Below, piece after piece: positions 2,027 to 55,417 of a stretch of DNA of 64,000 nucleotides. Every line of letters starts with the position of its first letter. Positions within the stretch are counted from its first letter, which is position 1. The stretch spans positions 1 through 64,000 of the forward strand of contig NZ_JACGWX010000001.1 of NCBI RefSeq assembly GCF_014137945.1, in the 5' to 3' direction. This DNA comes from Microcella alkalica. Its GTDB lineage: Bacteria > Actinomycetota > Actinomycetes > Actinomycetales > Microbacteriaceae. The position numbers were made by a program, and so were the translations under genes. The notes under the pieces were generated by a model. The model saw only the letters and a list, made by a program, of their open reading frames with translations, made no database searches and was not told the origin of the DNA.

Positions 2027-3407
2027 TCGGCTCCTGCTCCTGGCGCGCGGACGCCACGTCGGCGTCGCGCTGCTCGGCGCGGGCGCCGCCGCCGCGCTCG
2101 TCGTCGGAGTGCTCGCCGTGCCGGGGCCGGTGATCACGGCGCGGCCGACGACGGTCGAGGTCACCCCGGTGCGCGCGACGCAGTCGCTCGTGTGCGGCGG
2201 CCCCGTCCTGGGGCTCTCGCGCGGGCCCGAGCCCGAGATCATCGCCGTGGGCGAGCCCGTCCGCCGCAGCGCGGGCGAGGGGCTCGTCGAGCGTGCGATC
2301 GGCGAGAGCGACGCGGTCGATGGGGGAGCGGTGATCGTCGAGCTCCCGGCCGAGGCGCCCGCCGACGACGTCTCCGCGACCGAGCGGCAGGAGCTCGACG
2401 AGCCCGAGCTGCGTGGCCTCGCCGTCGCCGAGTGCCTCCCTCCCGCACCGACCTCGTGGCTCGTCGGCGGGAGCACGACGACCGGCCGATCGAGCACGAT
2501 CGTGCTGAGCAACCCCGGAGAGGTCGCCGCGACCGTCGACCTCTCGGTCTGGGGCGCGGACGGGCCGCTCGACACCGCGGGCAGCTCGGGCCTCATCGTC
2601 CCGCCCGGCGCCCAGCGCGTCATCCCGCTGTCCGGGCTCGCCCCGGATCAGTCGTCGCCCGTGGTCGGCATCACGAGCCGCGGCGGCGCGGTCGCGGCGA
2701 CCCTCCAACAGTCGACGATCGTCGGACTCGAGCCCGCGGGAGTCGACATCGTCACGCCCGTGAGCGCGCCGAGAGAGCGCGTCGTCATCCCTGTGCTGCC
2801 CGTCGGCGACGGCGAGGGCCTCGCCGTCGCCGCGGCCGCCCTCGGCGCCACCGACTTCTCGACAGTGCTCCGAGTCCTCGCGCCCGGCGACGAGCCGGCC
2901 GACATCACCGTGAGCCTGCTGCCCGACGCCGGGGGAGCGGGAACGGCTCTCACCGCTCGCGTCGAGCCGGGCGCCGTCGTCGACATCGCCCTCGGCGACC
3001 TCGCCGACGGCGACTACAGCGTCATCATCGACGCGACCAGGCCGGTCGTCGCCGCCGCGCGCGCCTCGACGGCCAGCGACGGGGGCATCGACTCGGCGTG
3101 GTTCACCGCGGCGCCTCTCCTCGACGACGAGGACGGTGACATCGTGTTCGCCGTCGCTCCGGGTGCGGGAGCGCGCCTGCACCTCGTCGCCCCCGACGAT
3201 GGCGCGATCGTGACGGTCGACGACGCTCTCGTCGAGCTCGGTCCCCGATCGCGCACGAGCCTGGAGCTCGCGGGAAGCACGGCGCCTGTGATGATCGTGA
3301 GCGGGGAGGTGCGGGCGTCCGTCTCGTATCTGACGGATGCGGGGCTCGCGTCATCGCGCATCCTCGCCCCGATCGCCGCCCCGCGACCGATCACCGTCCT
3401 CCCGTAG
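2019..3407 (+). CDS. DUF5719 family envelope protein
   Basis: A 462-residue protein with a short basic N-terminus and one hydrophobic segment (about residues 15-36) that serves as signal anchor. The remaining ~420 residues are rich in Val, Thr, Gly and short beta-type stretches, as expected of an exported beta-rich domain. It resembles the DUF5719 family, always found next to the large membrane glycosyltransferase in actinobacteria; the function of that family is unknown to me. The ATG overlaps the upstream stop by 8 bases, so the pair is co-translated and may form a membrane complex. It converges on the MMP-like gene with only 21 bases between the two stops. Confidence 0.72.
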   Translation: MTDRLLLLARGRHVGVALLGAGAAAALVVGVLAVPGPVITARPTTVEVTPVRATQSLVCGGPVLGLSRGPEPEIIAVGEPVRRSAGEGLVERAIGESDAVDGGAVIVELPAEAPADDVSATERQELDEPELRGLAVAECLPPAPTSWLVGGSTTTGRSSTIVLSNPGEVAATVDLSVWGADGPLDTAGSSGLIVPPGAQRVIPLSGLAPDQSSPVVGITSRGGAVAATLQQSTIVGLEPAGVDIVTPVSAPRERVVIPVLPVGDGEGLAVAAAALGATDFSTVLRVLAPGDEPADITVSLLPDAGGAGTALTARVEPGAVVDIALGDLADGDYSVIIDATRPVVAAARASTASDGGIDSAWFTAAPLLDDEDGDIVFAVAPGAGARLHLVAPDDGAIVTVDDALVELGPRSRTSLELAGSTAPVMIVSGEVRASVSYLTDAGLASSRILAPIAAPRPITVLP

Positions 3408-3428
3408 CCCGGAGAGCGACGGATGGCG

Positions 3429-3887
3429 CTACCAGTGCCGGAACCGGTCGGGCGCGAGATCCCACGGATCCTTGCCGATGAGCTCGCCGACGGCGCGGAA
3501 CACGCACGACTCCACCATGAGCCGGCGGTGCCAGTCGTCCTCCCGGTGCAGGCGGCTCATGCGCTCGATCGGGATCCGGTAGAGCACGACGAGACGGTGC
3601 TGCGGGATCACCCGCCAGCGCGCAACGCCCGAGACTCCCGGCGGCTGATCGGGCATCGGCAGCACCTCGATGCGGAGGGCGGCGAGCTCGTCCGGCCAGA
3701 GGTCCTGCAGGTAGTCGGCGGTCGCCTGCACGGTCGCCTCGAAAGCGTCGAGACGGGTGTGGGCGAGGGGAAGGTCGGGCCCGGTCACGGGGGATCGGCC
3801 GTTGCGGCCGTGCCGCGCGCGCGCCCGTGCGCTCGGGAGCGCCCGGGGGCTCGCGTACGAGCGCGGACGACGCGAGGCGAACGGCAT
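3429..3887 (-). CDS. Metallopeptidase-like (minimal MMP/zincin-fold) family protein
   Basis: A 152-residue protein of the family annotated as minimal metallopeptidase-like or zincin-like in actinobacteria. The first ~40 residues are a basic Arg-rich tail. The conserved domain follows, with an LDAFEATVQ-like opening and an AVGELIG...LAPDRF ending. No HExxH zinc motif can be seen: the place where it would fall reads VESCVFRAVGEL, so peptidase activity is doubtful. A longer frame opens at 3980 but would run through the divergent DUF3499 promoter. The start at 3887 is preferred because TACGCT (3899-3894) lies exactly 6 nt upstream, the leaderless pattern. It is divergent from DUF3499 with 34 bases between the starts. 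Confidence 0.7.
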   Translation of the reverse strand: MPFASRRPRSYASPRALPSARARARHGRNGRSPVTGPDLPLAHTRLDAFEATVQATADYLQDLWPDELAALRIEVLPMPDQPPGVSGVARWRVIPQHRLVVLYRIPIERMSRLHREDDWHRRLMVESCVFRAVGELIGKDPWDLAPDRFRHW

Positions 3888-3893
3888 GGCTCC

Positions 3894-3914
3894 AGCGTAT
3901 CGCCGCCGTATGCT
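3894..3914. promoter_or_regulatory. Divergent overlapping leaderless promoters (MMP-like / DUF3499)
   Basis: On the minus strand TACGCT (3899-3894) is followed by 6 bases and the ATG at 3887. On the plus strand TATGCT (3909-3914) is followed by 7 bases and the ATG at 3922. Both fit a -10 hexamer whose transcription start coincides with the start codon. Each promoter's -35 region must lie in the other gene's first codons, so the two polymerases would compete. Confidence 0.55.
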
Positions 3915-3921
3915 GAAGGTG

Positions 3922-4134
3922 ATGAGCGGTCGAGGGTGCAGCAAGGTCGCGTGCGGCGAGACGGCGGTGAGCACGCTCACCTACGTGTACGCCGACTCGA
4001 TGGCCGTCCTCGGCCCCCTCAGCGCACGACCCGAACCGCACAGCTACGACCTGTGCTCGCGCCACTCGCAGTCGCTCTCCGCCCCGCAGGGCTGGCAGGT
4101 CGTGCGCTACTCGGCGCTCGGCGAGGTCGGCTGA
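3922..4134 (+). CDS. DUF3499 family protein (putative zinc-binding)
   Basis: A 70-residue protein matching the actinobacterial DUF3499 family: an N-terminal CSKVAC motif (Cys6, Cys11), a TLTYVYADSMAVLGPL core and a YDLCSRH motif (Cys45, His48). The spacing of Cys6/Cys11 and Cys45/His48 suggests a small zinc-binding fold; this is inference. The start is ATG 3922, because TATGCT ends 7 bases upstream and no good ribosome-binding site is present. A GTG at 3919 and an ATG at 3910 are in-frame alternatives. It lies 45 bases upstream of phosphomannomutase, in the standard actinobacterial order. Function unknown. Confidence 0.8.
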   Translation: MSGRGCSKVACGETAVSTLTYVYADSMAVLGPLSARPEPHSYDLCSRHSQSLSAPQGWQVVRYSALGEVG

Positions 4135-4167
4135 GCGACGCCCGCCGGTCGCCCGCCCGCGCCCCGG

Positions 4168-4173
4168 TACGGT
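4168..4173 (+). promoter_or_regulatory. -10 hexamer of leaderless phosphomannomutase promoter
   Basis: TACGGT is followed by six bases and the GTG at 4180. This is the spacing expected when transcription begins at the first base of the start codon. No Shine-Dalgarno sequence is convincing. Confidence 0.55.
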
Positions 4174-4179
4174 GGAGCG

Positions 4180-5595
4180 GTGAGCACCGCACCCGATCTC
4201 AGTCAGTTCATCAAGGCCTACGACGTCCGAGGGCTCGTCGGCTCCCAGCTGACTGACGAGGTCGTCGAGGCGCTCGGCGCCGGCTTCGTCGACGAGATCG
4301 GTTCGGCGGGGCTCGAGGTGATGGTCGGTCACGACATGCGCGACTCCTCGCCCGGCTTCGTCGCCGCCTTCGCCCGCGGCGCGCAGGCCCGCGGCGCTCA
4401 CGTCGTCAACCTCGGGCTGTGCTCGACCGACGAGTCCTACTTCGCCTCGGGCCGGTACGACGCGCCCGCCGCGATGTTCACCGCGAGCCACAACCCGGCG
4501 ACCTACAACGGCATCAAGTTCTCGCGGGCCGGTGCGCAGGGCATCAGCCTCGCGACGGGGCTCGCCGGTATCCGCGACCGCGCGCAGGCATACCTCGAGG
4601 CGGGGGCCGTCCCGGCCGTGGCCGAGCCGGGCGGCTACTCAGTGCGCGACGTGCTGGCCGACTACGCCGCGTACCTGAGATCCCTCGTCGATCTGTCGGG
4701 CATCCGCCCGCTGCGCATCGTCGTCGACGCCGGAAACGGCATGGGCGGGATGACCGCGCCCGCCGTCCTCGGAACCGCCGCGGGCCTCGCGCCGCTCCCG
4801 CTCGAGATCATCCCGCTCTACTTCGAGCTCGACGGCACCTTCCCCAACCACGAGGCGAACCCGCTCGAGCCCGCCAATCTCGTCGACCTGCAGAAGGCCG
4901 TGCTCGATCACGGCGCCGACCTCGGGCTCGCGTTCGACGGCGACGCCGACCGCTGCTTCGTCATCGACGAGCTCGGCCAGCCCGTGACGCCGAGCGCAGT
5001 CGCCGCGATCGTGGCGCAGCGCGAGATCGACCGCGTGCGCTCAGCAGGCGAGACGGGCGAGATCCACGTCATCCACAACCTCATCACCTCGCGCATCGTC
5101 GCCGAGACGATCGAGGCGGCGGGGGCCGAGCCCGTCCGCACGAACGTCGGGCACTCGCTCATCAAGGACCGCATGCGCGAGACGGGCGCGATCTTCGGCG
5201 GCGAGCACTCGGCGCACTACTACTTCCGCGACTTCTGGGGCGCGGACAACGGCATGCTCGCGGCGATGCACCTGCTATCCCAGTACGGTGCGTTCGACGG
5301 TCCGCTCTCGAAGCTCGCCGCGCAGTACACCCCGTACACCGCGAGCGGCGAGATCAACTCGACCGTGACCGACGTGCCCGCCGCGTACACGCGCATCGTC
5401 GAGGCCTTCGCCGGTCGCGCCGAGATCGACGAGCTCGACGGGCTCACCTTCACCGGCAGCGCCGATGACGGCTGGTTCTGGTTCAACGTGCGCCCCTCGA
5501 ACACCGAGCCGCTGCTGCGCCTCAACGCCGAGGCGCAGACGCCCGAGGTCATGGCGGCGATCCGCGACGAGGTGCTGGGCCTGATCCGCGCGTAG
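4180..5595 (+). CDS. manB: Phosphomannomutase/phosphoglucomutase
   Basis: A 471-residue alpha-D-phosphohexomutase that interconverts mannose-6-P and mannose-1-P (and/or the glucose equivalents) in the cytoplasm, feeding GDP-mannose and envelope glycans. Four family landmarks are present in order: the catalytic phosphoserine loop TASHNP near residues 100-105, the Mg-binding loop DGDADRC near 250, the sugar-binding FGGEHSAH near 345, and the phosphate-binding RPSNTEP near 440. Length is typical. It starts at a GTG with a leaderless-type -10 upstream. Neighbouring DUF3499, MMP-like and glycosyltransferase genes are its conserved partners. The exact sugar preference cannot be read from sequence. 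Confidence 0.93.
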
Positions 5596-5782
5596 CCGCG
5601 CGCCATCCGCGTCGAGCGCCTCTCGCACGGTTGAGTGCGTTCGCCACGGTTGCCCGCGAAGTTTCGGGCTCATTCGCCACTTATGTACTCGATCGCTCGG
5701 CCGCGCTTCTCTCACCCCCGCGCGGGCCGCACCCCCGGCTCGCGCTCAGCGGGCGTGCGCCGAGTCCTGCGAGAATGCCCGC

Positions 5783-7300
<1,518 letters not shown>

Positions 7301-7314
7301 CGCGTTGACGGATG

Positions 7315-7341
7315 CGGGCCCGGTGCGATGCACCGGGCCCG
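7315..7341 (+). terminator. Terminator hairpin of ahcY
   Basis: A perfect 12 bp stem, CGGGCCCGGTGC (7315-7326) with GCACCGGGCCCG (7330-7341) and a GAT loop, 14 bases after the ahcY stop. Only two T residues follow, as is common for high-GC terminators. Confidence 0.75.
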
Positions 7342-7407
7342 TTCCCGCACCTCGGCAGAGGCATCCCGGACCCTGATCGCCCGCGACACGCCCGAGCCGA
7401 CGAGGAT

Positions 7408-7436
7408 TTGCCCGACGCCCCGCTCGGCCGTAATGT
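7408..7436 (+). promoter_or_regulatory. rrn operon promoter
   Basis: TTGCCC (7408-7413), a 17 base spacer and TAATGT (7431-7436) form a sigma-70-like promoter about 440 bases upstream of the 16S gene. The rest of 7342-7873 is rRNA leader with no protein gene I can support. Confidence 0.7.
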
Positions 7437-7664
7437 ATCTACCTGTTGCCCCAAGCGGGCGGGAGAGCGAAAAGCCTCCCGAACCCCAAGCGGAAACGAA
7501 CCCCCTCCTTCTCAGCCAGAACGGCTCGCCGTTCCGATGCGTGGAGGAGCGGGAAGCGGATCCCCTCCGATGACAGCGGCTCTCTCGAGAGCCGGCCAGT
7601 CGACGGGGAGCCGGAAGGAAGAGCCCTGTTGCGAGCGCTGCGAAGCGCGAGGTCAGGTGCGCCC

Positions 7665-7691
7665 GATCCTTGAGAACTCAACAGCGTGCAC
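7665..7691 (+). promoter_or_regulatory. rrn leader boxA-like antitermination motif
   Basis: The leader holds CCTTGAGAACTCAACAGCG, which matches the conserved TTTGAGAACTCAATAGTG-type boxA region of actinobacterial rrn leaders (established in mycobacteria for Nus-dependent antitermination). A related TTGAGAACTACACAG occurs in the 16S-23S spacer. Confidence 0.65.
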
Positions 7692-7873
7692 TAAGTCAAT
7701 GCCAAATTATCCTCGTCGGTCGACATCGTCGGCCGGTTGAGATTCCTTTGGATTGAAACGAATGTCAGTAGATATTCGAACTTCAGTCAGACAAACTCGC
7801 GGCAGCTCATCACTTCGGTGGCGGTTGTCGCAACTAGATGTGTCGCTCGGCCTTCGGGTCGTTCGGCTATCAA

Positions 7874-13048
<5,175 letters not shown>

Positions 13049-47780: not shown

Positions 47781-49343
47781 TCAGCTGCGATTGAGCTCCG
47801 GGTCCCGCTCCGGGTCACCCTCGGAGTCGAGCTCCCTCGTGAGCTCGTGGGTGCCGCCGCTCATCGCGTACTCCTCCTCGGGGGACAGGACGAGCTGCTT
47901 GCGGTAGTGCAGGCCGAACCCGAGCAGGATGAGCGCGTAGACGATGATGATCGCGACGATCGCCGCCTGGAAGGCGGGGTTCAGGAGAAGACCCACGAAC
48001 ACGAGCGCGGCGATCGCGGCGGCGCTGTACGCCCCGAACGTTCCCATCGGGCTCTTGTACGGGCGGGGGACGTTCGGGAACTTTCTCCGCAAGATGAGGA
48101 ACGCCACCATCTGCAGGAAGTACGCCACGACCGCGCCCCACACCGCGATGTTGAGGATGATCGCTCCGGCGACCGCGCCGATGCCCTCAGGGTCGACGCG
48201 ACCGAGCAGGTCGAGCACGACGATCGCGATGAAGCCGACCATGGCGCCCACCGTGAGCGCGACCCACGGGGTCTTGTTCTTGCCGGTGAGCGACATGAAC
48301 TTCGGGTAGTATCCTGCGCGCGATAGCGAGTACATGTTGCGCCCGTAGGCGAACATGATGCCGTGGAGCGAGGCGAGCAGCCCGATGAGGGCGAAGATCG
48401 CGAGCACGGCAGCCAGCTCGGGGCCCACGATCGAAGCGAAGCCCTCGACGAGCGGCTCGAGCGAGACACCCGTGGCCTCCGCCCCGAGAACGCCGGTGTT
48501 GAGGAAGAGCACGAGGAGGCCCGTGATGATGAGCGTCGCGCGAGCGAGCACCGCGGCGCGCGGGATGTCCTTCTCGGGGGAGTGCGACTCCTCGGCCGCG
48601 AGGGGGAGCTCCTCGATGCCCAGGAAGAACCACATCGCGAACGGCAGCGCGAACAGGATCGCGACCCAGCCCTCCGGCAGGAACACCGTCGATCCGGCGA
48701 CCTCGGGATTGGGCGCCATGTCCCACAGCTTGTCCCACGAGAACGCGCCGGAGGCGAGCGCCATGACCGAGAACACCAGGATGATGCCGATCGCGATGAT
48801 GGAGACGACGATCGCGAAGCGGAACGAGATGGCCGCGCCGGCCGCATTGAGCCCGACGAACGCTGCGTAGAGGAGGATCCACCAGATCCACATCAAGTTC
48901 TGATCGGCGAGCGAGAAGCCGAGGAGCCCGCCGGTCACGAAGTCCAGGTACTGGGCCGAGAAGAACACGACGACGGCGGTCGTCGCGACGTACTCGATCG
49001 TCTCGGCGGCTCCCGTGATCAGGCCGCCCCATGGGCCCATGGCCGAGCGGCCGAAGGAGTACGCGCCTCCCGTGTGCGGCATTGCGGCCGACATCTCGCT
49101 GATGGAGAAGGTCAGGCCGTAGTACATGAGCACGAGGACGGCAAAGGCGATGAGCATGCCGCCGAAGCCCGCGAAGTCGATGCCGAAGTTCCAGCCGGAG
49201 AAGTCGCCGGAGATGACCGCAGCGACGGCGAGGCCCCAGAGGCCCCACACTCCCGCTGATCGGCGCAGGCCGCGCTTCTCGAAGTAGCCCTTGTCGACGC
49301 TGGTGTACGTGACACCGCCCGTCGCCTTGGTCGTTTCCGCCAT
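47781..49343 (-). CDS. eat: APC-family permease, ethanolamine permease type
   Basis: A 520-residue protein with about 12 membrane segments. The N-terminus YFEKRGLRRSAGVWGLWGLA followed by VISGDFSGWNFGI is characteristic of the Eat ethanolamine permease group of the APC superfamily. The permease is transcribed divergently from a glutamine synthetase-like operon, with 221 bases between the starts. AGGAGG lies 5 bases before the ATG. Likely role: uptake of ethanolamine or a similar small amine for the neighbouring pathway. A polyamine or amino-acid substrate is possible and is not excluded by sequence. Confidence 0.82.
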   Translation of the reverse strand: MAETTKATGGVTYTSVDKGYFEKRGLRRSAGVWGLWGLAVAAVISGDFSGWNFGIDFAGFGGMLIAFAVLVLMYYGLTFSISEMSAAMPHTGGAYSFGRSAMGPWGGLITGAAETIEYVATTAVVVFFSAQYLDFVTGGLLGFSLADQNLMWIWWILLYAAFVGLNAAGAAISFRFAIVVSIIAIGIILVFSVMALASGAFSWDKLWDMAPNPEVAGSTVFLPEGWVAILFALPFAMWFFLGIEELPLAAEESHSPEKDIPRAAVLARATLIITGLLVLFLNTGVLGAEATGVSLEPLVEGFASIVGPELAAVLAIFALIGLLASLHGIMFAYGRNMYSLSRAGYYPKFMSLTGKNKTPWVALTVGAMVGFIAIVVLDLLGRVDPEGIGAVAGAIILNIAVWGAVVAYFLQMVAFLILRRKFPNVPRPYKSPMGTFGAYSAAAIAALVFVGLLLNPAFQAAIVAIIIVYALILLGFGLHYRKQLVLSPEEEYAMSGGTHELTRELDSEGDPERDPELNRS

Positions 49344-49469
49344 GCATTCCTCCTGGGGGGATGGACATCGAGTCCGGGGTGGACAGGGGTGGAGCTGTCA
49401 TGCGCGTTCGATGGCACGGCGCCACGGTGCGCTTGTGGGGAAGCATGCCGCTAAAGGTGGTTCCTGTCT

Positions 49470-49534
49470 ACCATTAACGCGCGAGCGGCCCGTAAACGGG
49501 CCGTTGCAGGTGCGCCGCGTGTGGTACTAATGGT
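49470..49534. promoter_or_regulatory. Divergent control region with paired TAATGGT sites and an 18 bp palindrome
   Basis: ACCATTA (49470-49476) and TAATGGT (49528-49534) are inverted copies of one motif, one beside each divergent gene. Between them lies CGGCCCGTAAACGGGCCG (49486-49503), a perfect 7 bp inverted repeat around TAAA. TTGCAG at 49504-49509 is a possible -35 for the synthetase operon, placing the right TAATGGT over its -10. The FCD regulator encoded at 53850 is the natural candidate to bind here. Confidence 0.45.
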
Positions 49535-49564
49535 CGAAACCGCGCCAGTCGAAGGAGACGAGCC

Positions 49565-50944
49565 ATGACCGCTGCACCCTCCGGAGTCCGCTCGGGGAAC
49601 CTGAGCGCCCACGATCTCGAGAAGAGCATCCGGGCCGGGGAGATCGACACGGTCATCGTCGCCTTCACCGACATGCAGGGCCGGCTCGTCGGGAAGCGCG
49701 TCTCGGCGCGCCTGTTCAGCGAGGAGGTCGGCTCGCACGGAGCGGAGTGCTGCAACTACCTGCTCGCGGTCGACGTCGAGATGAACACCGTCGACGGGTA
49801 CGCCATCTCGAGCTGGGAGCGCGGCTACGGCGATATGGTCATGCAGCCCGACCTCGACACCCTCCGGCTCATTCCATGGCTGCCAGGCACCGCGATGGTG
49901 CTCGCCGATCTGCTCTTCCTCGACGGCACGCCGGTCGCCCCGAGCCCGCGCGCGGTCCTCCGCCGCCAGGTCGACCGCCTCGCCGCCCACGGCCTAGAGC
50001 CCTTCGTCGGCACCGAGCTCGAGTTCATCGTCTTCGACGACGGCTACCGCGACGCCTGGCGCAAGGGCTACCGCGACCTCACGCCCGCGAGCGACTACAA
50101 CATCGACTACGCGCTCATGGCATCGACGCGCATGGAGCCGCTGCTGCGCGACATCCGCCTGAGCATGGACGGCGCGGGCATGTACTGCGAGGGCGTCAAG
50201 GGCGAGTGCAACCTCGGCCAGCAGGAGATCGCCTTCCGCTACGCTCACGCGCTCGCGACGTGCGACAACCACTCGATCTACAAGAACGGCGCGAAGGAGA
50301 TCGCCGACCGTCACGGCAAGTCACTGACGTTCATGGCGAAGTTCAACGAGCGCGAGGGCAACAGCTGCCACATCCACCTCAGCGTGCGCGGCACAGACGG
50401 CGCCCCCGTCATGGCGGGCGATCGCGAGCACGGGTTCTCGCCCCTCATGGAGCACTGGCTCGCCGGCCAGCTCGCCGCAATGCGCGAGCTCACCCTGTTC
50501 TTCGCCCCCGCGATCAACTCGTACAAGCGCTACGTCGAGGGCAGCTTCGCCCCCACCGCGATCGCGTGGGGCTTCGACAACCGCACGTGCGCGCTCCGCG
50601 TCGTCGGCCACGGTCAGAGCCTGCGCGTCGAGAACCGCGTGCCGGGCGGCGACGTCAACCAGTACCTCGCGACGGCCGCGATCATCGCGGCGGGCATCCA
50701 CGGGATCGAGAACGAGCTCACCCTCGAGGAGGCCTTCACGGGGAACGCCTACGGCTCCGACAAGCCGCGCGTGCCCGCGACGCTGCGCGAGGCCGCCGAG
50801 CTGTTCGCCGGCTCCGCGATCGCGCGGAGCGCGTTCGGGCAGGATGTCGTCGACCACTACCTGAACACGGCGCGCGTCGAGCAGAAGGCATTCGACGCGG
50901 CCGTCACCGACTGGGAGCGCTTCCGTGGCTTCGAACGATTCTGA
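49565..50944 (+). CDS. Glutamine synthetase-like gamma-glutamyl-amide ligase
   Basis: A 459-residue GS-fold enzyme. The N-terminal beta-grasp (DTVIVAFTDMQGRLVGKRV, near residues 20-40) and the catalytic barrel are present: GTELEFIVFD with metal-binding Glu (~148), GECNLGQQE (~217), CHIHLSV with the metal His (~275), NSYKRY and NRTCALRVV. It lacks the adenylylation loop and extra length of housekeeping GlnA. With a permease, glutamine-amidotransferase-like hydrolase, aldehyde dehydrogenase and SDR around it, it resembles gamma-glutamylethanolamide synthetase (Streptomyces GlnA4 type) or gamma-glutamylpolyamine synthetase. The ATG has GAAGGAG upstream. Confidence 0.85.
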   Translation: MTAAPSGVRSGNLSAHDLEKSIRAGEIDTVIVAFTDMQGRLVGKRVSARLFSEEVGSHGAECCNYLLAVDVEMNTVDGYAISSWERGYGDMVMQPDLDTLRLIPWLPGTAMVLADLLFLDGTPVAPSPRAVLRRQVDRLAAHGLEPFVGTELEFIVFDDGYRDAWRKGYRDLTPASDYNIDYALMASTRMEPLLRDIRLSMDGAGMYCEGVKGECNLGQQEIAFRYAHALATCDNHSIYKNGAKEIADRHGKSLTFMAKFNEREGNSCHIHLSVRGTDGAPVMAGDREHGFSPLMEHWLAGQLAAMRELTLFFAPAINSYKRYVEGSFAPTAIAWGFDNRTCALRVVGHGQSLRVENRVPGGDVNQYLATAAIIAAGIHGIENELTLEEAFTGNAYGSDKPRVPATLREAAELFAGSAIARSAFGQDVVDHYLNTARVEQKAFDAAVTDWERFRGFERF

Positions 50945-51680
50945 CCATCGCCGACCCGTCATCGGGCTCACGACCTACCTCGAGCAGGCGCAGACGGGCG
51001 TGTGGGATGTCCCCGCCGCGTTCCTGCCGAAGTTCTACTTCGAGGCGGTGACGCGCGCCGGCGGAACCGTCGTCCTGCTGCCTCCCCAGCCGGTGGACCA
51101 GGCCGTCGCCGACAGCGTCCTCGATGGGCTCGACGGGCTCATCATCACGGGAGGCAAGGACGTGGAGGCCGCCCGGTACGGGGAGGCTCCGCACCCGACC
51201 AACGACGTGCCGCGCACCGATCGCGACGACTTCGAGTTCGCGCTCCTGGAGCGCGCGATCGCCCGCGACATCCCCTTCTTCGGCATCTGCCGGGGCATGC
51301 AGGTTCTCAACGTGCTGCGTGGCGGCACGCTCATCCAGCACCTGCCGGACGTCATCGGCACCGACAGGTACAACGCGGGCGGCGGCGTCTTCACGCCGAA
51401 CCCGGCGATCACCGTCCCGGGCACCCGCCTGGCCGAGCTCGTCGGCGGCGAGGTGACCGTGCAGAGCTACCACCACCAGGCGCTCGACGAGGTCGGCGAT
51501 GGCCTGACGGTGAGCGCGCGCGGCGACGACGGCATCATCCAGGCCGTCGACGTCGACGGCATGAGCTTCGGCGTCGCCGTGCAGTGGCACCCCGAGATGT
51601 CGCAGGACGACCTCCGTCTGTTCGCGGGCCTCGTCGAGGCGGCGGCCGAGCGCGCCGAGAGCCGCCGGGTGCGCGCGTGA
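50925..51680 (+). CDS. Gamma-glutamyl-gamma-aminobutyrate hydrolase-like class I amidotransferase
   Basis: A 251-residue PuuD-type hydrolase. The catalytic triad is visible: the nucleophile Cys in FFGICRGMQVLNVLRGG (near residue 122), and His and Glu in QWHPEM (near 222-226). The family cleaves the gamma-glutamyl amide bond and releases glutamate. In this operon it would remove the glutamyl tag after oxidation of the amine carbon chain. The GTG start lies inside the end of the synthetase gene (20 base overlap), and the stop overlaps the next start by 4 bases. Both overlaps point to tight coupling. Confidence 0.88.
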   Translation: MASNDSDHRRPVIGLTTYLEQAQTGVWDVPAAFLPKFYFEAVTRAGGTVVLLPPQPVDQAVADSVLDGLDGLIITGGKDVEAARYGEAPHPTNDVPRTDRDDFEFALLERAIARDIPFFGICRGMQVLNVLRGGTLIQHLPDVIGTDRYNAGGGVFTPNPAITVPGTRLAELVGGEVTVQSYHHQALDEVGDGLTVSARGDDGIIQAVDVDGMSFGVAVQWHPEMSQDDLRLFAGLVEAAAERAESRRVRA

Positions 51681-53035
51681 GCGAGACGACCCTCATCAAC
51701 CCGGCCGACGAGACCGTCATCGCGGCGGTGCAGCACACGACGCTCGAGGAGGTCGACGAGGCCGTCGCGCGCGCAGTGGTCGCGCAGCGCGCCTGGTCCG
51801 CTCTCGCACCCGTCGACCGCGCGAGGGCCCTGCGCCGCTTCGCCGCCGTCGTCGACGCGCACATCGAGGAGCTCGCTCTGCTCGAGGTGCGCAACTCTGG
51901 CCACCCGATCGGCGCGGCCCGCTGGGAGGCGGGCAACGTGCGCGACGTGCTCGACTACTACAGCGGCGCACCCGAGCGGCTCATCGGCCAGCAGATCCCC
52001 GTCGCGGGCGGTCTCGACGTCACCTTCCACGAGCCGCTCGGCGTCGTCGGGGTGATCGTGCCGTGGAACTTCCCCATGCCGATCGCGGCATGGGGCTTCG
52101 CGCCGGCGCTCGCCGCGGGCAACGCCGTGCTCCTGAAGCCCGCCGACTGGACGCCGCTCACCGCCATCCGCCTCGGCGAGCTCGCGCTCGAGTCGGGCCT
52201 GCCGGAGCACCTCTTCCAGGTGCTCCCGGGCCGCGGCTCGGTCGTCGGCGACCGGTTCGTCACGCACGAGCAGGTGCGCAAGGTCGTCTTCACCGGCTCG
52301 ACCGAGGTCGGCAAACGCGTGATGGCCGGATGCGCGGCGCAGGTGAAGCCCGTGACGCTCGAGCTCGGCGGCAAGAGCGCGAACATCGTGTTCGCCGACG
52401 CCGACCTCGAGGCCGCGGCATCCGGCGCCCCCGGATCGGTCTTCGACAACGCCGGCCAGGACTGCTGCGCCCGCTCGCGACTGCTCGTCGAGCGCAGCGT
52501 GCTCGACCGCTTCCTCGAGCTCCTCGAGCCCGCGGTGCGAGGCTTCCGCGTGGGCGACCCGAACGACGAGTCGACCGAGATGGGTCCGCTCGTGTCGAAG
52601 GGGCACTTCGAGAACGTCGCGGCCTTCCTCGACGACGACGTGACGGTCGCCTTCCGCGGCAGGGCACCCGACGGCCCCGGCTACTGGATGGCGCCCACCG
52701 TCCTCCTCCCCAGCCGCACCGACCGCGTCGCGACGGAGGAGATCTTCGGCCCCGTCGTCTCGGTGCTGCCGTTCGACGACGAAGCCGATGCGATCGCTCT
52801 GGCGAACGACTCGATCTTCGGGCTCTCCGGCTCGATCTGGACGCGCGACCTCGGCAGGGGCATCCGCGTCGCCCGCGGGGTCGAGAGCGGCGCGCTCAGC
52901 GTCAACTCGCACTCGTCCGTGCGGTACGCCACGCCCTTCGGCGGCTTCAAGCAGTCGGGTCTCGGGCGCGAGCTCGGCCCGGACGCCCCGCTCGCCTTCA
53001 CCGAGACCAAGAACGTCTTCTTCTCCCACAGCTGA
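51677..53035 (+). CDS. NAD-dependent aldehyde dehydrogenase
   Basis: A 452-residue ALDH. VPWNFPMPIAAW holds the catalytic Asn, ELGGKSANIV the general-base Glu (near 242), and NAGQDCCARSRL the nucleophilic Cys (near 263-264). EEIFGPVVSV is the cofactor site. It is short at the N-terminus compared with ~480-residue relatives, though the core is complete. In context it should oxidise a gamma-glutamylated aldehyde to the acid. It is coupled by GTGA to the hydrolase gene and is 14 bases upstream of the SDR gene. Confidence 0.9.
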   Translation: MSETTLINPADETVIAAVQHTTLEEVDEAVARAVVAQRAWSALAPVDRARALRRFAAVVDAHIEELALLEVRNSGHPIGAARWEAGNVRDVLDYYSGAPERLIGQQIPVAGGLDVTFHEPLGVVGVIVPWNFPMPIAAWGFAPALAAGNAVLLKPADWTPLTAIRLGELALESGLPEHLFQVLPGRGSVVGDRFVTHEQVRKVVFTGSTEVGKRVMAGCAAQVKPVTLELGGKSANIVFADADLEAAASGAPGSVFDNAGQDCCARSRLLVERSVLDRFLELLEPAVRGFRVGDPNDESTEMGPLVSKGHFENVAAFLDDDVTVAFRGRAPDGPGYWMAPTVLLPSRTDRVATEEIFGPVVSVLPFDDEADAIALANDSIFGLSGSIWTRDLGRGIRVARGVESGALSVNSHSSVRYATPFGGFKQSGLGRELGPDAPLAFTETKNVFFSHS

Positions 53036-53049
53036 CAGGAGCCGGCACC

Positions 53050-53838
53050 ATGAACATCACCCCCATCGACCTCACCCAGCGGCTCGGCGGCAAGGTCGCC
53101 GTCATCACCGGCGGTGCGAGCGGCATCGGCTTCGCGACCGCGCGCCGCTTCGCCGCGGAGGGCGCGCGCGTCGTGATCGGCGACATGAACCCGGAGGCGG
53201 GGGAAGCGGCCGCGTCCGAGGTCGACGGGCTCTTCGTGCAGGTCGACGTGACCGACGAGGCCCAGGTCAACGCCCTGTTCGACACCGCGCAGAGGACGTA
53301 CGGCTCGCTCGACATCGCCTTCAACAACGCCGGGATCTCGCCGCCCGACGACGACTCGATCGAGACCACGGAGCTTCCGGCGTGGGATCGCGTGCAGGAG
53401 GTCAATCTCAAGAGCGTCTACCTGTGCTCGCGCGCAGCGCTGCGACACATGGTCGCCCAGCAGTCCGGCTCGATCATCAACACCGCGTCCTTCGTCGCCG
53501 TCATGGGCAGCGCAACGAGCCAGATCTCGTACACGGCGTCCAAGGGCGGCGTGCTCGCGATGACGCGCGAGCTCGGGGTGCAGTTCGCCCGTCAGGGCAT
53601 CCGCGTCAACGCTCTGTGCCCTGGCCCCGTCAACACGCCGCTGCTGCAGGAGTTGTTCGCCAAAGACCCCGAGCGCGCCCAGCGCCGCCTCGTGCACATC
53701 CCGAAGGGCCGCTTCGCCGAGGCGGAGGAGCTCGCCGCCGCCGTCGCGTTCCTCGCGAGCGACGACGCGTCGTTCATCACGGGCTCCACCTTCCTCGTCG
53801 ACGGCGGCATCAGCGCCGCCTACGTGACGCCCCTCTGA
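53050..53838 (+). CDS. Short-chain dehydrogenase/reductase (SDR)
   Basis: A 262-residue classical SDR. The cofactor motif TGGASGIG is near residues 21-28 and NNAG near 93-96. The catalytic residues are the Ser in INTASFVA and Tyr and Lys in SYTASKGG (YxxxK). The acidic Asp after beta-2 (IGDMNP) suggests NAD preference. It would fit oxidation of the alcohol of a gamma-glutamylethanolamide-type intermediate to the aldehyde used by the upstream dehydrogenase; this is inference. ATG 53050 has AGGAG at 53037-53041. Confidence 0.9.
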   Translation: MNITPIDLTQRLGGKVAVITGGASGIGFATARRFAAEGARVVIGDMNPEAGEAAASEVDGLFVQVDVTDEAQVNALFDTAQRTYGSLDIAFNNAGISPPDDDSIETTELPAWDRVQEVNLKSVYLCSRAALRHMVAQQSGSIINTASFVAVMGSATSQISYTASKGGVLAMTRELGVQFARQGIRVNALCPGPVNTPLLQELFAKDPERAQRRLVHIPKGRFAEAEELAAAVAFLASDDASFITGSTFLVDGGISAAYVTPL

Positions 53839-53849
53839 ACGAGCACGCC

Positions 53850-54581
53850 GTGACCGAGCCCGCACCGACGCCCGAGGGGCTCGCTCTCGAGGCCTTCAGC
53901 CGACCGGTGCGGGGCGGCAACGCCTTCGAGGAGACCCTCGCGCGGCTCCTGCAGCTCATCCGGCTCGGCGTCGTGCCGCCCGGCGAGGCCCTGGCCCCCG
54001 AGCGCGAGCTCGCGGCGCGGCTCGAGGTGAGTCGCGACACCGTGCGCGAGGCGATCAGGGCGCTCGCCGAGGCCGGCTACGTCGAGTCGCGGCGGGGCCG
54101 CTACGGAGGGACGTTCGTGCGCGAGCCGCTTCCGCACCCCGAGGAGGGCCCGGGCGAACGCGTGTCGGCCGACGAGGTGCGGGATGCTTTGCTCGTTCGC
54201 GCGGTGCTCGAGGTCGGCGCAGCGAGGGCGGCGGCATCCACGCCCCTGACGGCGGCGCAGCGCGACGATCTGGCGACCCGCATGCGCGAGGTCGCAGCCG
54301 CGGACGGCGCCGAGTACCGTCGCCTCGACTCGCGACTGCACCTCACCCTCGCCGAGCTCGCCGGCAGCCCCACGCTCGTCTCGCTCATGGCCGACAACAG
54401 GATGCGCGTCAACGTGCTGCTCGACCGGATCCCGCTGCTCCCGCCGAACATCGCGCACTCGAACGAGCAGCACGAGCGCATCGTGTGGGCCGTGCTGTCG
54501 GGCGATGCGGACGGCGCCGCGGCCGCGATGGCCGAGCACCTCGAGGGCACGGCGTCGCTCCTGCGGGGGTTCCTCGCGTAG
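53850..54581 (+). CDS. GntR-family regulator, FadR/FCD subfamily
   Basis: A 243-residue regulator. The N-terminal winged helix (residues ~22-90) includes LAPERELAARLEVSRDTVREAIRAL (quoted to LAPERELAARLEVSRDTVRE) and ESRRGRYGGTFV. The all-helical FCD ligand domain (~105-235) has the metal-binding Asp/His pattern RLDSRLHLTLAEL...NEQHERI. FCD proteins sense organic acids or amino-acid derivatives. It is 11 bases behind the SDR gene, so it probably regulates the operon and the divergent permease. The GTG start is the first sensible one; a slightly longer N-terminus is possible. Confidence 0.87.
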   Translation: MTEPAPTPEGLALEAFSRPVRGGNAFEETLARLLQLIRLGVVPPGEALAPERELAARLEVSRDTVREAIRALAEAGYVESRRGRYGGTFVREPLPHPEEGPGERVSADEVRDALLVRAVLEVGAARAAASTPLTAAQRDDLATRMREVAAADGAEYRRLDSRLHLTLAELAGSPTLVSLMADNRMRVNVLLDRIPLLPPNIAHSNEQHERIVWAVLSGDADGAAAAMAEHLEGTASLLRGFLA

Positions 54582-54625: not shown

Positions 54626-55417
54626 TCAGGCGAGGTGCTCGCGCGCGAACGCGACCGTCTCGCGCAGCTCGGCGAGCCGAGCGCGGTCGTCGCGGCCGCA
54701 GTGCCGCGTGTTGAGCTCGGCGACGACGTCGCCCGCGAACCCGCTCGCGACCAGGTGCCGCAGGAGCGCCGCGACCGGCTGCCCACCCCGCCCCGGAACG
54801 AGATGCGCGTCGACGAGGCGGCCTCCCGCGTCTGGCGCCGCAGCGTCGCACAGATGGACGTGGTGCAGGCGATCGCCCCACGCGCGCGCCAGCTCGAGGG
54901 CCGAGACGCGCGCCATGCTCGCGTGCGAGACGTCGAGCACGAGGCGGTCGACGGCGAGCTCGCCCGGGTTCCAGTGCGGGGCGAAGGCGTCGCGCGCGCG
55001 GCCGCCCGCCGCGACGGGGAACATGTTCTCGACCGCGATCGTCACCCCCGAGGCGGTGGCGATCTCGGCGACGGCGGCTTCGAACACCGCGGCCCAGCGG
55101 CCCTGCCAGCGCCAGGGCGGGTGGGCGACGACCGTGGTCGCTCCCAGCTCTTCGGCGAGGGCGGCGGCCCGCTCGAGCTTCGTGCGCGGGTTGCGCCCGA
55201 AGACCAGAGTGCTGAAGAGCAGGACGGGGGCGTGGATGCTCAGCACGGGCATCCCGTACCGCGTCGACAGCGCACCGATCGTGCGAGCGCTCTGCGTCGC
55301 GCGGTCGCTCGTGATCATGACCTCGACGCCGTCGAACCCGGCATCGCGAGCCAGCAGGAAGGCGGGCTCGAGGCGGCGGGGGAGCACGCTCGTGGTGCCC
55401 ATGCCGACCCGGATCAT
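54626..55417 (-). CDS. Sugar phosphate isomerase/epimerase-like TIM-barrel protein
   Basis: A 263-residue xylose-isomerase-like/AP-endonuclease-2-like barrel with metal ligands visible in the usual strands: EVMITSD, VAVENMFP (Glu), LDVSHASM (Asp, His), HHVHLCDA (His) and VVAELNTR (Glu). The family includes sugar isomerases, inosose dehydratases and endonuclease IV, and the substrate cannot be read here. It converges on the FCD regulator gene. The start ATG 55417 has TAGGGT (55429-55424) ending 6 bases upstream, the leaderless arrangement. Confidence 0.8.
   Translation of the reverse strand: MIRVGMGTTSVLPRRLEPAFLLARDAGFDGVEVMITSDRATQSARTIGALSTRYGMPVLSIHAPVLLFSTLVFGRNPRTKLERAAALAEELGATTVVAHPPWRWQGRWAAVFEAAVAEIATASGVTIAVENMFPVAAGGRARDAFAPHWNPGELAVDRLVLDVSHASMARVSALELARAWGDRLHHVHLCDAAAPDAGGRLVDAHLVPGRGGQPVAALLRHLVASGFAGDVVAELNTRHCGRDDRARLAELRETVAFAREHLA

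What the first reader, a model, noticed from the sequence alone, without database searches (positions are those of the whole stretch)
47781..54581. Complete microcompartment-free amine (ethanolamine-type) catabolic cluster using a glutamine-synthetase-like ligase
Seen: an Eat-type permease divergent from an operon encoding a GS-fold ligase, SDR, aldehyde dehydrogenase, PuuD-like gamma-glutamyl hydrolase and an FCD regulator, with overlapping genes. Known: Streptomyces coelicolor GlnA4 makes gamma-glutamylethanolamide, and PuuA/GlnA3 glutamylate polyamines. Inferred: ethanolamine is imported, glutamylated, oxidised at the alcohol (SDR) and aldehyde (ALDH), then hydrolysed to glutamate plus glycine. 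The SDR step and the Eat permease favour ethanolamine over polyamines. All steps sit in one locus, and no ammonia-lyase (EutBC) or shell proteins are needed.
Basis: partly seen in the sequence, partly recalled or inferred. Interest (0 to 1): 0.75.

Follow-up and report, generated by a model that had tools for sequence, protein, structure and literature searches.

The report
Known glutamylation-type ethanolamine-eating gene cluster
Six neighbouring genes most likely let this bacterium take up ethanolamine, tag it with glutamate, oxidise it and release glycine; the route is already published in Streptomyces and marine bacteria, and what is added here is the same gene set in another family plus a predicted DNA switch that controls it.

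Summary
An Eat-like permease (47781-49343, -) diverges from an operon: GS-like ligase, PuuD-like hydrolase, aldehyde dehydrogenase, SDR, FCD-GntR regulator (49565-54581, +), all with open frames and expected catalytic residues.

The same gene types and steps were published for Streptomyces coelicolor SCO1610-SCO1615 in 2019, and a variant for Chromohalobacter, Agrobacterium and Phaeobacter. The window ligase falls in a clade (100/97) with Streptomycetaceae and Nonomuraea homologues in epu-type clusters, outside GlnA, PuuA and its own paralogues. All 13 listed GlnA4 residues are kept; only two of them discriminate.

Synteny: 62 of 66 closely related loci with enough flank carry all six genes in order. 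Of 150 same-family genomes, 67 have a full-length ligase at least 57% identical and none has EutB. The own genome has no EutB or BMC match.

Added here: a 23-bp inverted repeat, AWWGGT-N11-ACCWWT, in the divergent promoter region (49453-49475). It, or an N10 form, occurs in 68 of 76 such regions; the N11 form matches once in the 2.74-Mb own genome. It is the likely operator of the EpuRI-type regulator. Not tested: substrate, later enzyme steps, regulator binding.

The parts
47781..49343 (-). APC-superfamily permease, Eat-like; proposed ethanolamine importer
   Evidence: (TIGR00908 best model, below cut-off); conserved divergent neighbour
49453..49475 (.). predicted operator AWWGGT-N11-ACCWWT of the FCD regulator, in the divergent promoter region
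   Evidence: only exact match to this pattern in the 2.74-Mb own genome and in the window
49522..49536 (+). TGGTACTAATGGTCG element about 37 bp before the ligase start; possibly promoter -10 region overlapping an operator half-site (TAATGGT)
   Evidence: TAATGGT on either strand in 66 of 76 divergent intergenic regions; context; promoter reading is inference (the sigma-70 scan found none)
49565..50944 (+). GS-fold gamma-glutamyl-amine ligase of the GlnA4 clade; proposed gamma-glutamylethanolamide synthetase
50925..51680 (+). PuuD-like class-I amidotransferase / Peptidase C26; proposed gamma-glutamylglycine hydrolase; Cys122, His222
   Evidence: catalytic motifs recalled
51677..53035 (+). aldehyde dehydrogenase; proposed gamma-glutamylaminoacetaldehyde dehydrogenase; Glu229 and Cys263 (numbered from GTG 51677; the script printed 264, the second of two neighbouring Cys)
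   Evidence: catalytic motifs recalled
53050..53838 (+). SDR, NF004713 family; proposed gamma-glutamylethanolamide dehydrogenase; Ser147-Tyr161-Lys165
   Evidence: catalytic motifs recalled
53850..54581 (+). FCD-domain GntR regulator, EpuRI-like; proposed ethanolamine-responsive repressor (start GTG 53850 likely)

Best explanation
It is a complete gamma-glutamylation (Epu/GlnA4-type) ethanolamine catabolic cluster. The permease imports ethanolamine. The GlnA4-type ligase joins it to the gamma-carboxyl of glutamate at the cost of one ATP. The SDR oxidises the alcohol to gamma-glutamylaminoacetaldehyde, the aldehyde dehydrogenase makes gamma-glutamylglycine, and the PuuD-like hydrolase splits that into glycine and glutamate, so glutamate is recycled. 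The amine stays acylated and no free acetaldehyde arises, so no shell is needed. The FCD regulator, last gene of the operon, most likely represses both divergent promoters through the palindrome at 49453-49475 until ethanolamine or a derivative releases it. Shown here: gene content, catalytic residues, clade, synteny, no EutB/BMC match, operator conservation. Shown by others on homologues: ethanolamine specificity of S. coelicolor GlnA4, its repression by EpuRI, EpuRI binding to the glnA4 promoter. Inferred: substrate in this organism, steps 2-4, regulator-operator pairing.
For: Ligase in a 30-row clade (100/97) with Embleya, Nonomuraea and unnamed large-genome homologues in epu-type clusters, apart from E. 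coli GlnA, PuuA and four own paralogues. 13 of 13 GlnA4 residues listed in the paper are kept; 10 of these are the same in all 43 rows and an 11th in 42, so they do not discriminate, but the pair E269+F331 (GlnA4 numbering) is in 30 of 30 clade rows and 0 of 13 others (hand count; 28 distinct sequences in the clade). Same gene set as SCO1610-1615 with proved first step; loci L125 and L126 reproduce the SDR-ALDH-ligase // regulator-(permease)-hydrolase layout of Streptomyces. SDR NF004713 over cut-off in 28 of 198 phylum genomes, 27 of them with a ligase of at least 60% identity, in 25 of these 27 within 6 kb on the same contig (hand count). No EutB, no BMC match in the own genome; 0 of 150 family genomes with EutB, 67 of 150 with a full-length ligase of at least 57% identity (hand count). 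Operator.
Against: No assay. The permease scores under the TIGR00908 cut-off and is only 37-38% identical to the permease in Streptomyces-type loci, and the 2019 paper says that the tested Streptomyces permease is unlike Eat, so it may not be its orthologue. One clade ligase (L106, second copy of genome G161) has no match to hydrolase, ALDH or SDR in its 4.35-kb locus. The proposed operator is reduced to a half-site in Streptomyces-type loci, and 8 of 76 intergenic regions lack it. Steps 2-4 are predictions in S. coelicolor too.
Confidence: 0.88

Rival explanations
1. Same chemistry, other primary amino alcohol: the cluster handles 3-amino-1-propanol, serinol or a similar compound, ethanolamine being secondary.
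For: SDR plus ALDH only demand a primary amino alcohol (inference); the pocket residue at GlnA4 V189 is Leu here and varies (V, I, M, L) across the clade; the permease differs from the Streptomyces one.
Against: GlnA4 of S. coelicolor was specific for ethanolamine among the compounds tested in vitro; ethanolamine is the abundant natural amino alcohol (general knowledge).
Confidence: 0.08
2. Polyamine or monoamine catabolism of the Puu type.
For: Ligase, PuuD-like hydrolase and ALDH types are shared with the puu operon.
Against: No PuuB-type oxidase or PuuE transaminase in the operon (compare; the rest of the genome was not searched for them); NF045547 gamma-glutamylputrescine synthetase scores 178.7 against a cut-off of 650; PuuA is outside the ligase clade in the tree (its own place is weakly supported, 85/54); an SDR is not needed for an amine without hydroxyl.
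Confidence: 0.02
3. Housekeeping or spare glutamine synthetase with an accidental neighbourhood.
For: GS fold; three glutamate-ammonia ligase models match below their cut-offs.
Against: Four other GS genes in the genome, one grouping with E. coli GlnA; flap Glu replaced by Phe; 62 of 66 loci keep the six-gene order.
Confidence: 0.01

Closest known systems
S. coelicolor/Streptomyces epu (glnA4) cluster SCO1610-SCO1615 (PMC6529630)
   Same: Same gene types: SDR, ALDH, GlnA4 ligase, EpuRI-type regulator, amidotransferase-type hydrolase, permease in some species; same proposed steps.
   Different: Here the hydrolase is second in the ligase operon, the regulator is its last gene, the permease is divergent; in Streptomyces the regulator is divergent from glnA4 and the hydrolase lies beyond it. 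Palindromic operator candidate here, half-site at most in Streptomyces-type loci. The Streptomyces permease is described as unlike Eat.
Phaeobacter/Paracoccus eto operon and Chromohalobacter/Agrobacterium route (PMC10132767)
   Same: GS-like ethanolamine glutamylase plus two dehydrogenases and an amidohydrolase.
   Different: TRAP transporter, iron-containing alcohol dehydrogenase, N-formylglutamate-type amidohydrolase, RpiR regulator (L118); ligase about 50% identical.
E. coli puu operon
   Same: gamma-glutamyl ligase, PuuD, ALDH logic.
   Different: Putrescine, oxidase PuuB, aminotransferase PuuE, PuuR; ligase 32% identical.
eut (EutBC, with or without microcompartment)
   Same: Substrate.
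   Different: No EutB and no BMC shell match in the genome.

Membership tests
GlnA4-type gamma-glutamylethanolamide synthetase | Groups with GlnA4-clade ligases, not GlnA/PuuA | tested here: met
   SCO1613 itself not in the tree, Streptomycetaceae homologues used
GlnA4-type gamma-glutamylethanolamide synthetase | Metal, glutamate and ADP residues, and Phe in place of the Glu327 flap residue | tested here: met
   13 of 13, against numbers; only E269 and F331 discriminate among the 43 rows
GlnA4-type gamma-glutamylethanolamide synthetase | Amine-pocket residues D81/D69 and V189/D186 (model-dependent in the paper) | tested here: inconclusive
   D186 position Asp, V189 position Leu; D81/D69 could not be placed with certainty
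GlnA4-type gamma-glutamylethanolamide synthetase | Activity with ethanolamine, not ammonia or polyamines | not testable with these tools
   needs enzyme assay
gamma-glutamyl ethanolamine pathway (epu) | Ligase, alcohol dehydrogenase, aldehyde dehydrogenase, gamma-glutamyl hydrolase in one cluster | tested here: met
gamma-glutamyl ethanolamine pathway (epu) | EpuRI-type FCD regulator | tested here: met
   50-55% identical to regulators next to the ligase in Streptomyces-type loci; EpuRI's own sequence not held
gamma-glutamyl ethanolamine pathway (epu) | Induction by ethanolamine, growth on it | not testable with these tools
   needs culture
Eat ethanolamine permease (TIGR00908) | Score above curated cut-off 381.75 | tested here: not met
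   318.9 bits; Eat-like only
eut pathway | EutB ammonia-lyase | tested here: not met
   control E. coli rang
BMC microcompartment | BMC-domain shell protein | tested here: not met
   controls E. coli and Synechococcus rang
PuuA / puu operon | NF045547 over cut-off, PuuB oxidase in the operon | tested here: not met
   (178.7 of 650); no oxidase among the genes

The most novel reading that the evidence does not exclude
In Microbacteriaceae this six-gene unit is the main or only ethanolamine route and is run as a self-contained, single-target switch: the FCD regulator at the operon's end binds one palindrome per genome, AWWGGT-N10/11-ACCWWT, between the divergent promoters, unlike the multi-target EpuRI network reported in Streptomyces. 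(EutB is absent from 150 of 150 family genomes; other routes were not searched. Single occurrence was checked in the own genome only, N11 form only.)
Probability: 0.5. Interest if true: 0.35.

Novelty: new member of a known kind. Interest (0 to 1): 0.25.

Why it matters
It suggests that the published shell-free ethanolamine route is common in a large environmental family (67 of 150 genomes by ligase; none with EutB), gives the SDR family NF004713 a likely real function in place of its generic name, and offers one precise operator site to test. It does not open a new kind of system.

Tried and rejected
Housekeeping GS: rejected. Polyamine route: rejected as best reading. Eut route: no match. 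Sigma-70 promoter scan: 0 hits (mean 0.2 in shuffles), uninformative; the terminator scan gave 5 hits (1.6 expected), all inside the permease gene, ignored. Exact-dyad counting of intergenic regions gave weak signals, and a Gibbs sampler forced to symmetric motifs of 14-18 bp gave mixed alignments; k-mer counting and context reading gave the operator. Because the pattern was written after reading the same regions, the control (50 shuffles of dinucleotide blocks, mean 0.04 of 76, max 1) flatters it. Partly independent checks: the single genome-wide match of the N11 form, and 3 of 21 loci outside the discovery set that carry it (L076, L083, L088), 18 of 21 not (two pairs among the 21 are the same place, so 19 distinct). 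A first residue-number test with a single offset gave 6 of 8 until a two-residue shift after residue 276 was allowed. A PDB search with E. coli PuuA added nothing used here. A phrase search for glutamine synthetase, ethanolamine and Microbacteriaceae found 0 papers. No structure prediction was run: the PDB already holds close sequence relatives 5dm3 and 11zs; that 5dm3 is from Chromohalobacter is recalled.
Full report
What is there. The permease (47781-49343, minus) is 221 bp away from the ligase start (49565). The ligase, hydrolase and aldehyde dehydrogenase overlap (20 bp and 4 bp); the SDR follows after 14 bp and the FCD regulator 11 bp after it, if GTG 53850 is its start. Catalytic residues are in place: SDR Ser147/Tyr161/Lys165, ALDH Glu229/Cys263, hydrolase Cys122/His222 (which printed 264 for the second of two neighbouring ALDH cysteines; the motifs are recalled from general knowledge). 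The convergent gene beyond the regulator (54626-55417, minus) is a TIM-barrel protein of the xylose-isomerase type and is not part of the operon.

The organism. The nearest ligase homologues are from Microcella and Yonghaparkia, 96-97% identical, so the window is from Microbacteriaceae. The genome is 2.74 Mb and 99.99% complete by the tool's figure.

The ligase. The genome holds five GS-type genes. In a maximum-likelihood tree of 43 rows (41 different) the window ligase falls in a 30-row clade (support 100/97) with Embleya, Nonomuraea, an Arthrobacter plasmid, Mycobacteriaceae and Microbacteriaceae homologues. E. coli GlnA, E. coli PuuA and the four own paralogues lie outside; the Paracoccus eto ligase is a near neighbour outside the clade. 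The tool warned of long branches among the outside rows, and PuuA's place has weak support, so their mutual order is not relied on. Thirteen residues that the 2019 paper lists for GlnA4 (metal, glutamate, ADP and flap Phe331) are all conserved, allowing a two-residue shift after residue 276. Ten of them are the same in all 43 rows and Gly270 in 42, so they only show an intact GS-type site; Glu269 together with Phe331 is found in 30 of 30 clade rows and 0 of 13 others (counted by hand; 28 of the 30 are distinct sequences). The pocket position V189 is Leu here. The sequence of SCO1613 itself was not available. The closest solved chains are 11zs and 5dm3.

Cluster conservation. Of the 80 best loci from named genome contigs (mostly Microbacteriaceae), 66 had enough flank; 62 of these show permease, ligase, hydrolase, ALDH, SDR and regulator in this order, 3 lack the permease at that place, and 1 (L077) lacks ALDH, SDR and regulator at the expected places (in one search its SDR lies nearer). 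These 80 were the most similar of 567 hits, so the figure describes close relatives. In 80 of 80 the hydrolase frame is open across the ligase stop. Wider out, loci L125 and L126, from an unnamed genus with 7-10 Mb genomes, show SDR-ALDH-ligase divergent from regulator, permease (L126 only), hydrolase, which is the layout described for Streptomyces. The Paracoccus plasmid locus L118 has the layout described for the Phaeobacter eto operon. Against this, L106, a second ligase copy in genome G161, has no match to the other five proteins in its 4.35-kb locus.

Distribution. In 150 genomes of the same family (own included), 67 have a full-length ligase at 57% identity or more, two more have fragments (G235, G221), and the next matches are at 37% or less (counted by hand from the listing); EutB was found in 0 of the 150. 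Other ethanolamine routes were not searched. One of the two other genomes of the same genus lacks the ligase (G334), so the cluster is accessory. In 198 genomes across the phylum (own included), 29 carry a listed ligase match of at least 60% identity (27 whole, 2 in pieces), 28 carry the SDR family NF004713 over its cut-off, and 27 carry both; in 25 of those 27 they are within 6 kb on one contig, in 2 (G013, G184) on separate contigs. The exceptions are G166 (SDR, ligase 48%), G165 (SDR 378.6 bits, under the 404 cut-off) and G141 (SDR cut by a contig end). These are hand counts from the two listings. This ties the SDR to the pathway and suggests that its NCBIfam name, 3-oxoacyl-ACP reductase, is a generic label.

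Regulation. The divergent intergenic regions of 76 loci (window included) share TAATGGT on either strand in 66 and an inverted repeat AWWGGT-N10/11-ACCWWT in 68, 61 of them with N11; 50 shuffles of dinucleotide blocks gave a mean of 0.04 and at most 1 of 76. The pattern was defined on these data, so this control is lenient. Eight regions lack it, two of them (L058, L062) without even a half-site. In the own genome the N11 form matches once, at 49453-49475; the N10 form was not searched there. Of 21 loci outside the 76 (19 distinct), three have it upstream of the ligase (L076, L083, L088). Several Streptomyces-type loci have only one AATGGT or AAAGGT half-site between -37 and -67. The Arthrobacter locus L117 (no match to this FCD regulator, though a GntR-family gene lies near) has no half-site, and Paracoccus L118 only two distant half-sites. 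His-EpuRI of S. coelicolor gave eight positive gel shifts, the glnA4 promoter among them (passage in PMC8998196). The terms palindrom, operator, motif and inverted repeat do not occur in the main text of PMC6529630, nor palindrom and binding motif in PMC8998196; no wider claim of novelty is made for the operator.

Prior art. PMC6529630 (sections Results and Discussion read) reports that GlnA4 makes gamma-glutamylethanolamide, that the glnA4 mutant did not grow on ethanolamine in liquid culture and was strongly delayed on plates, that deletion of epuRI releases glnA4 expression, and proposes SCO1611, SCO1612 and SCO1615 for the later steps. PMC9397018 (passages) repeats this. PMC10132767 (passages) reports induction of the homologous operon on phosphorylethanolamine in Phaeobacter and says that the pathway was demonstrated in Chromohalobacter and Agrobacterium, while PMC6529630 calls the Chromohalobacter pathway an in silico prediction; the cited original was not seen. 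So the pathway is known and this is a further member. Literature searches.

Verdict.

Noticed in passing
L117 (Arthrobacter sp. U41 plasmid, NZ_CP015733.1) 2554-12275: Ligase-hydrolase-ALDH-SDR quartet on a plasmid typed as conjugative, preceded by an amidase and an inositol monophosphatase-family gene, with a GntR regulator and a choline kinase-family gene on the other strand; hints at mobile spread and an acyl- or phospho-ethanolamine feed.
   Followed up: no
L077 (Cryobacterium melibiosiphilum): Ligase and hydrolase kept, but ALDH and regulator have no match in the locus and the SDR lies directly after the hydrolase; a pathway missing its third step or using another dehydrogenase.
   Followed up: no
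G221:C1:2741456-2742516: Family member with only fragments of the ligase, one with two in-frame stops: looks like a decaying copy.
   Followed up: no
L124 (G128:C1:3073900-3075700): A large-genome relative carries a second GlnA4-like ligase, 45% identical, with Arg-Ala in place of the glutamate-site Glu-Gly; substrate unknown.
   Followed up: partly
G007:C41, G061:C9, G037:C89, G127:C125 (family f13): These four genomes of one actinobacterial family each have 7 or 8 GS-like matches, three of them within about 20 kb; looks like arrays of amine ligases.
   Followed up: no
window 53050-53838: NCBIfam NF004713 names this SDR 3-oxoacyl-ACP reductase, although across the phylum it tracks the ethanolamine ligase.
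   Followed up: yes
window 54626-55417 (-): Xylose-isomerase-like TIM barrel gene convergent with the regulator; no link to the operon seen.
   Followed up: no
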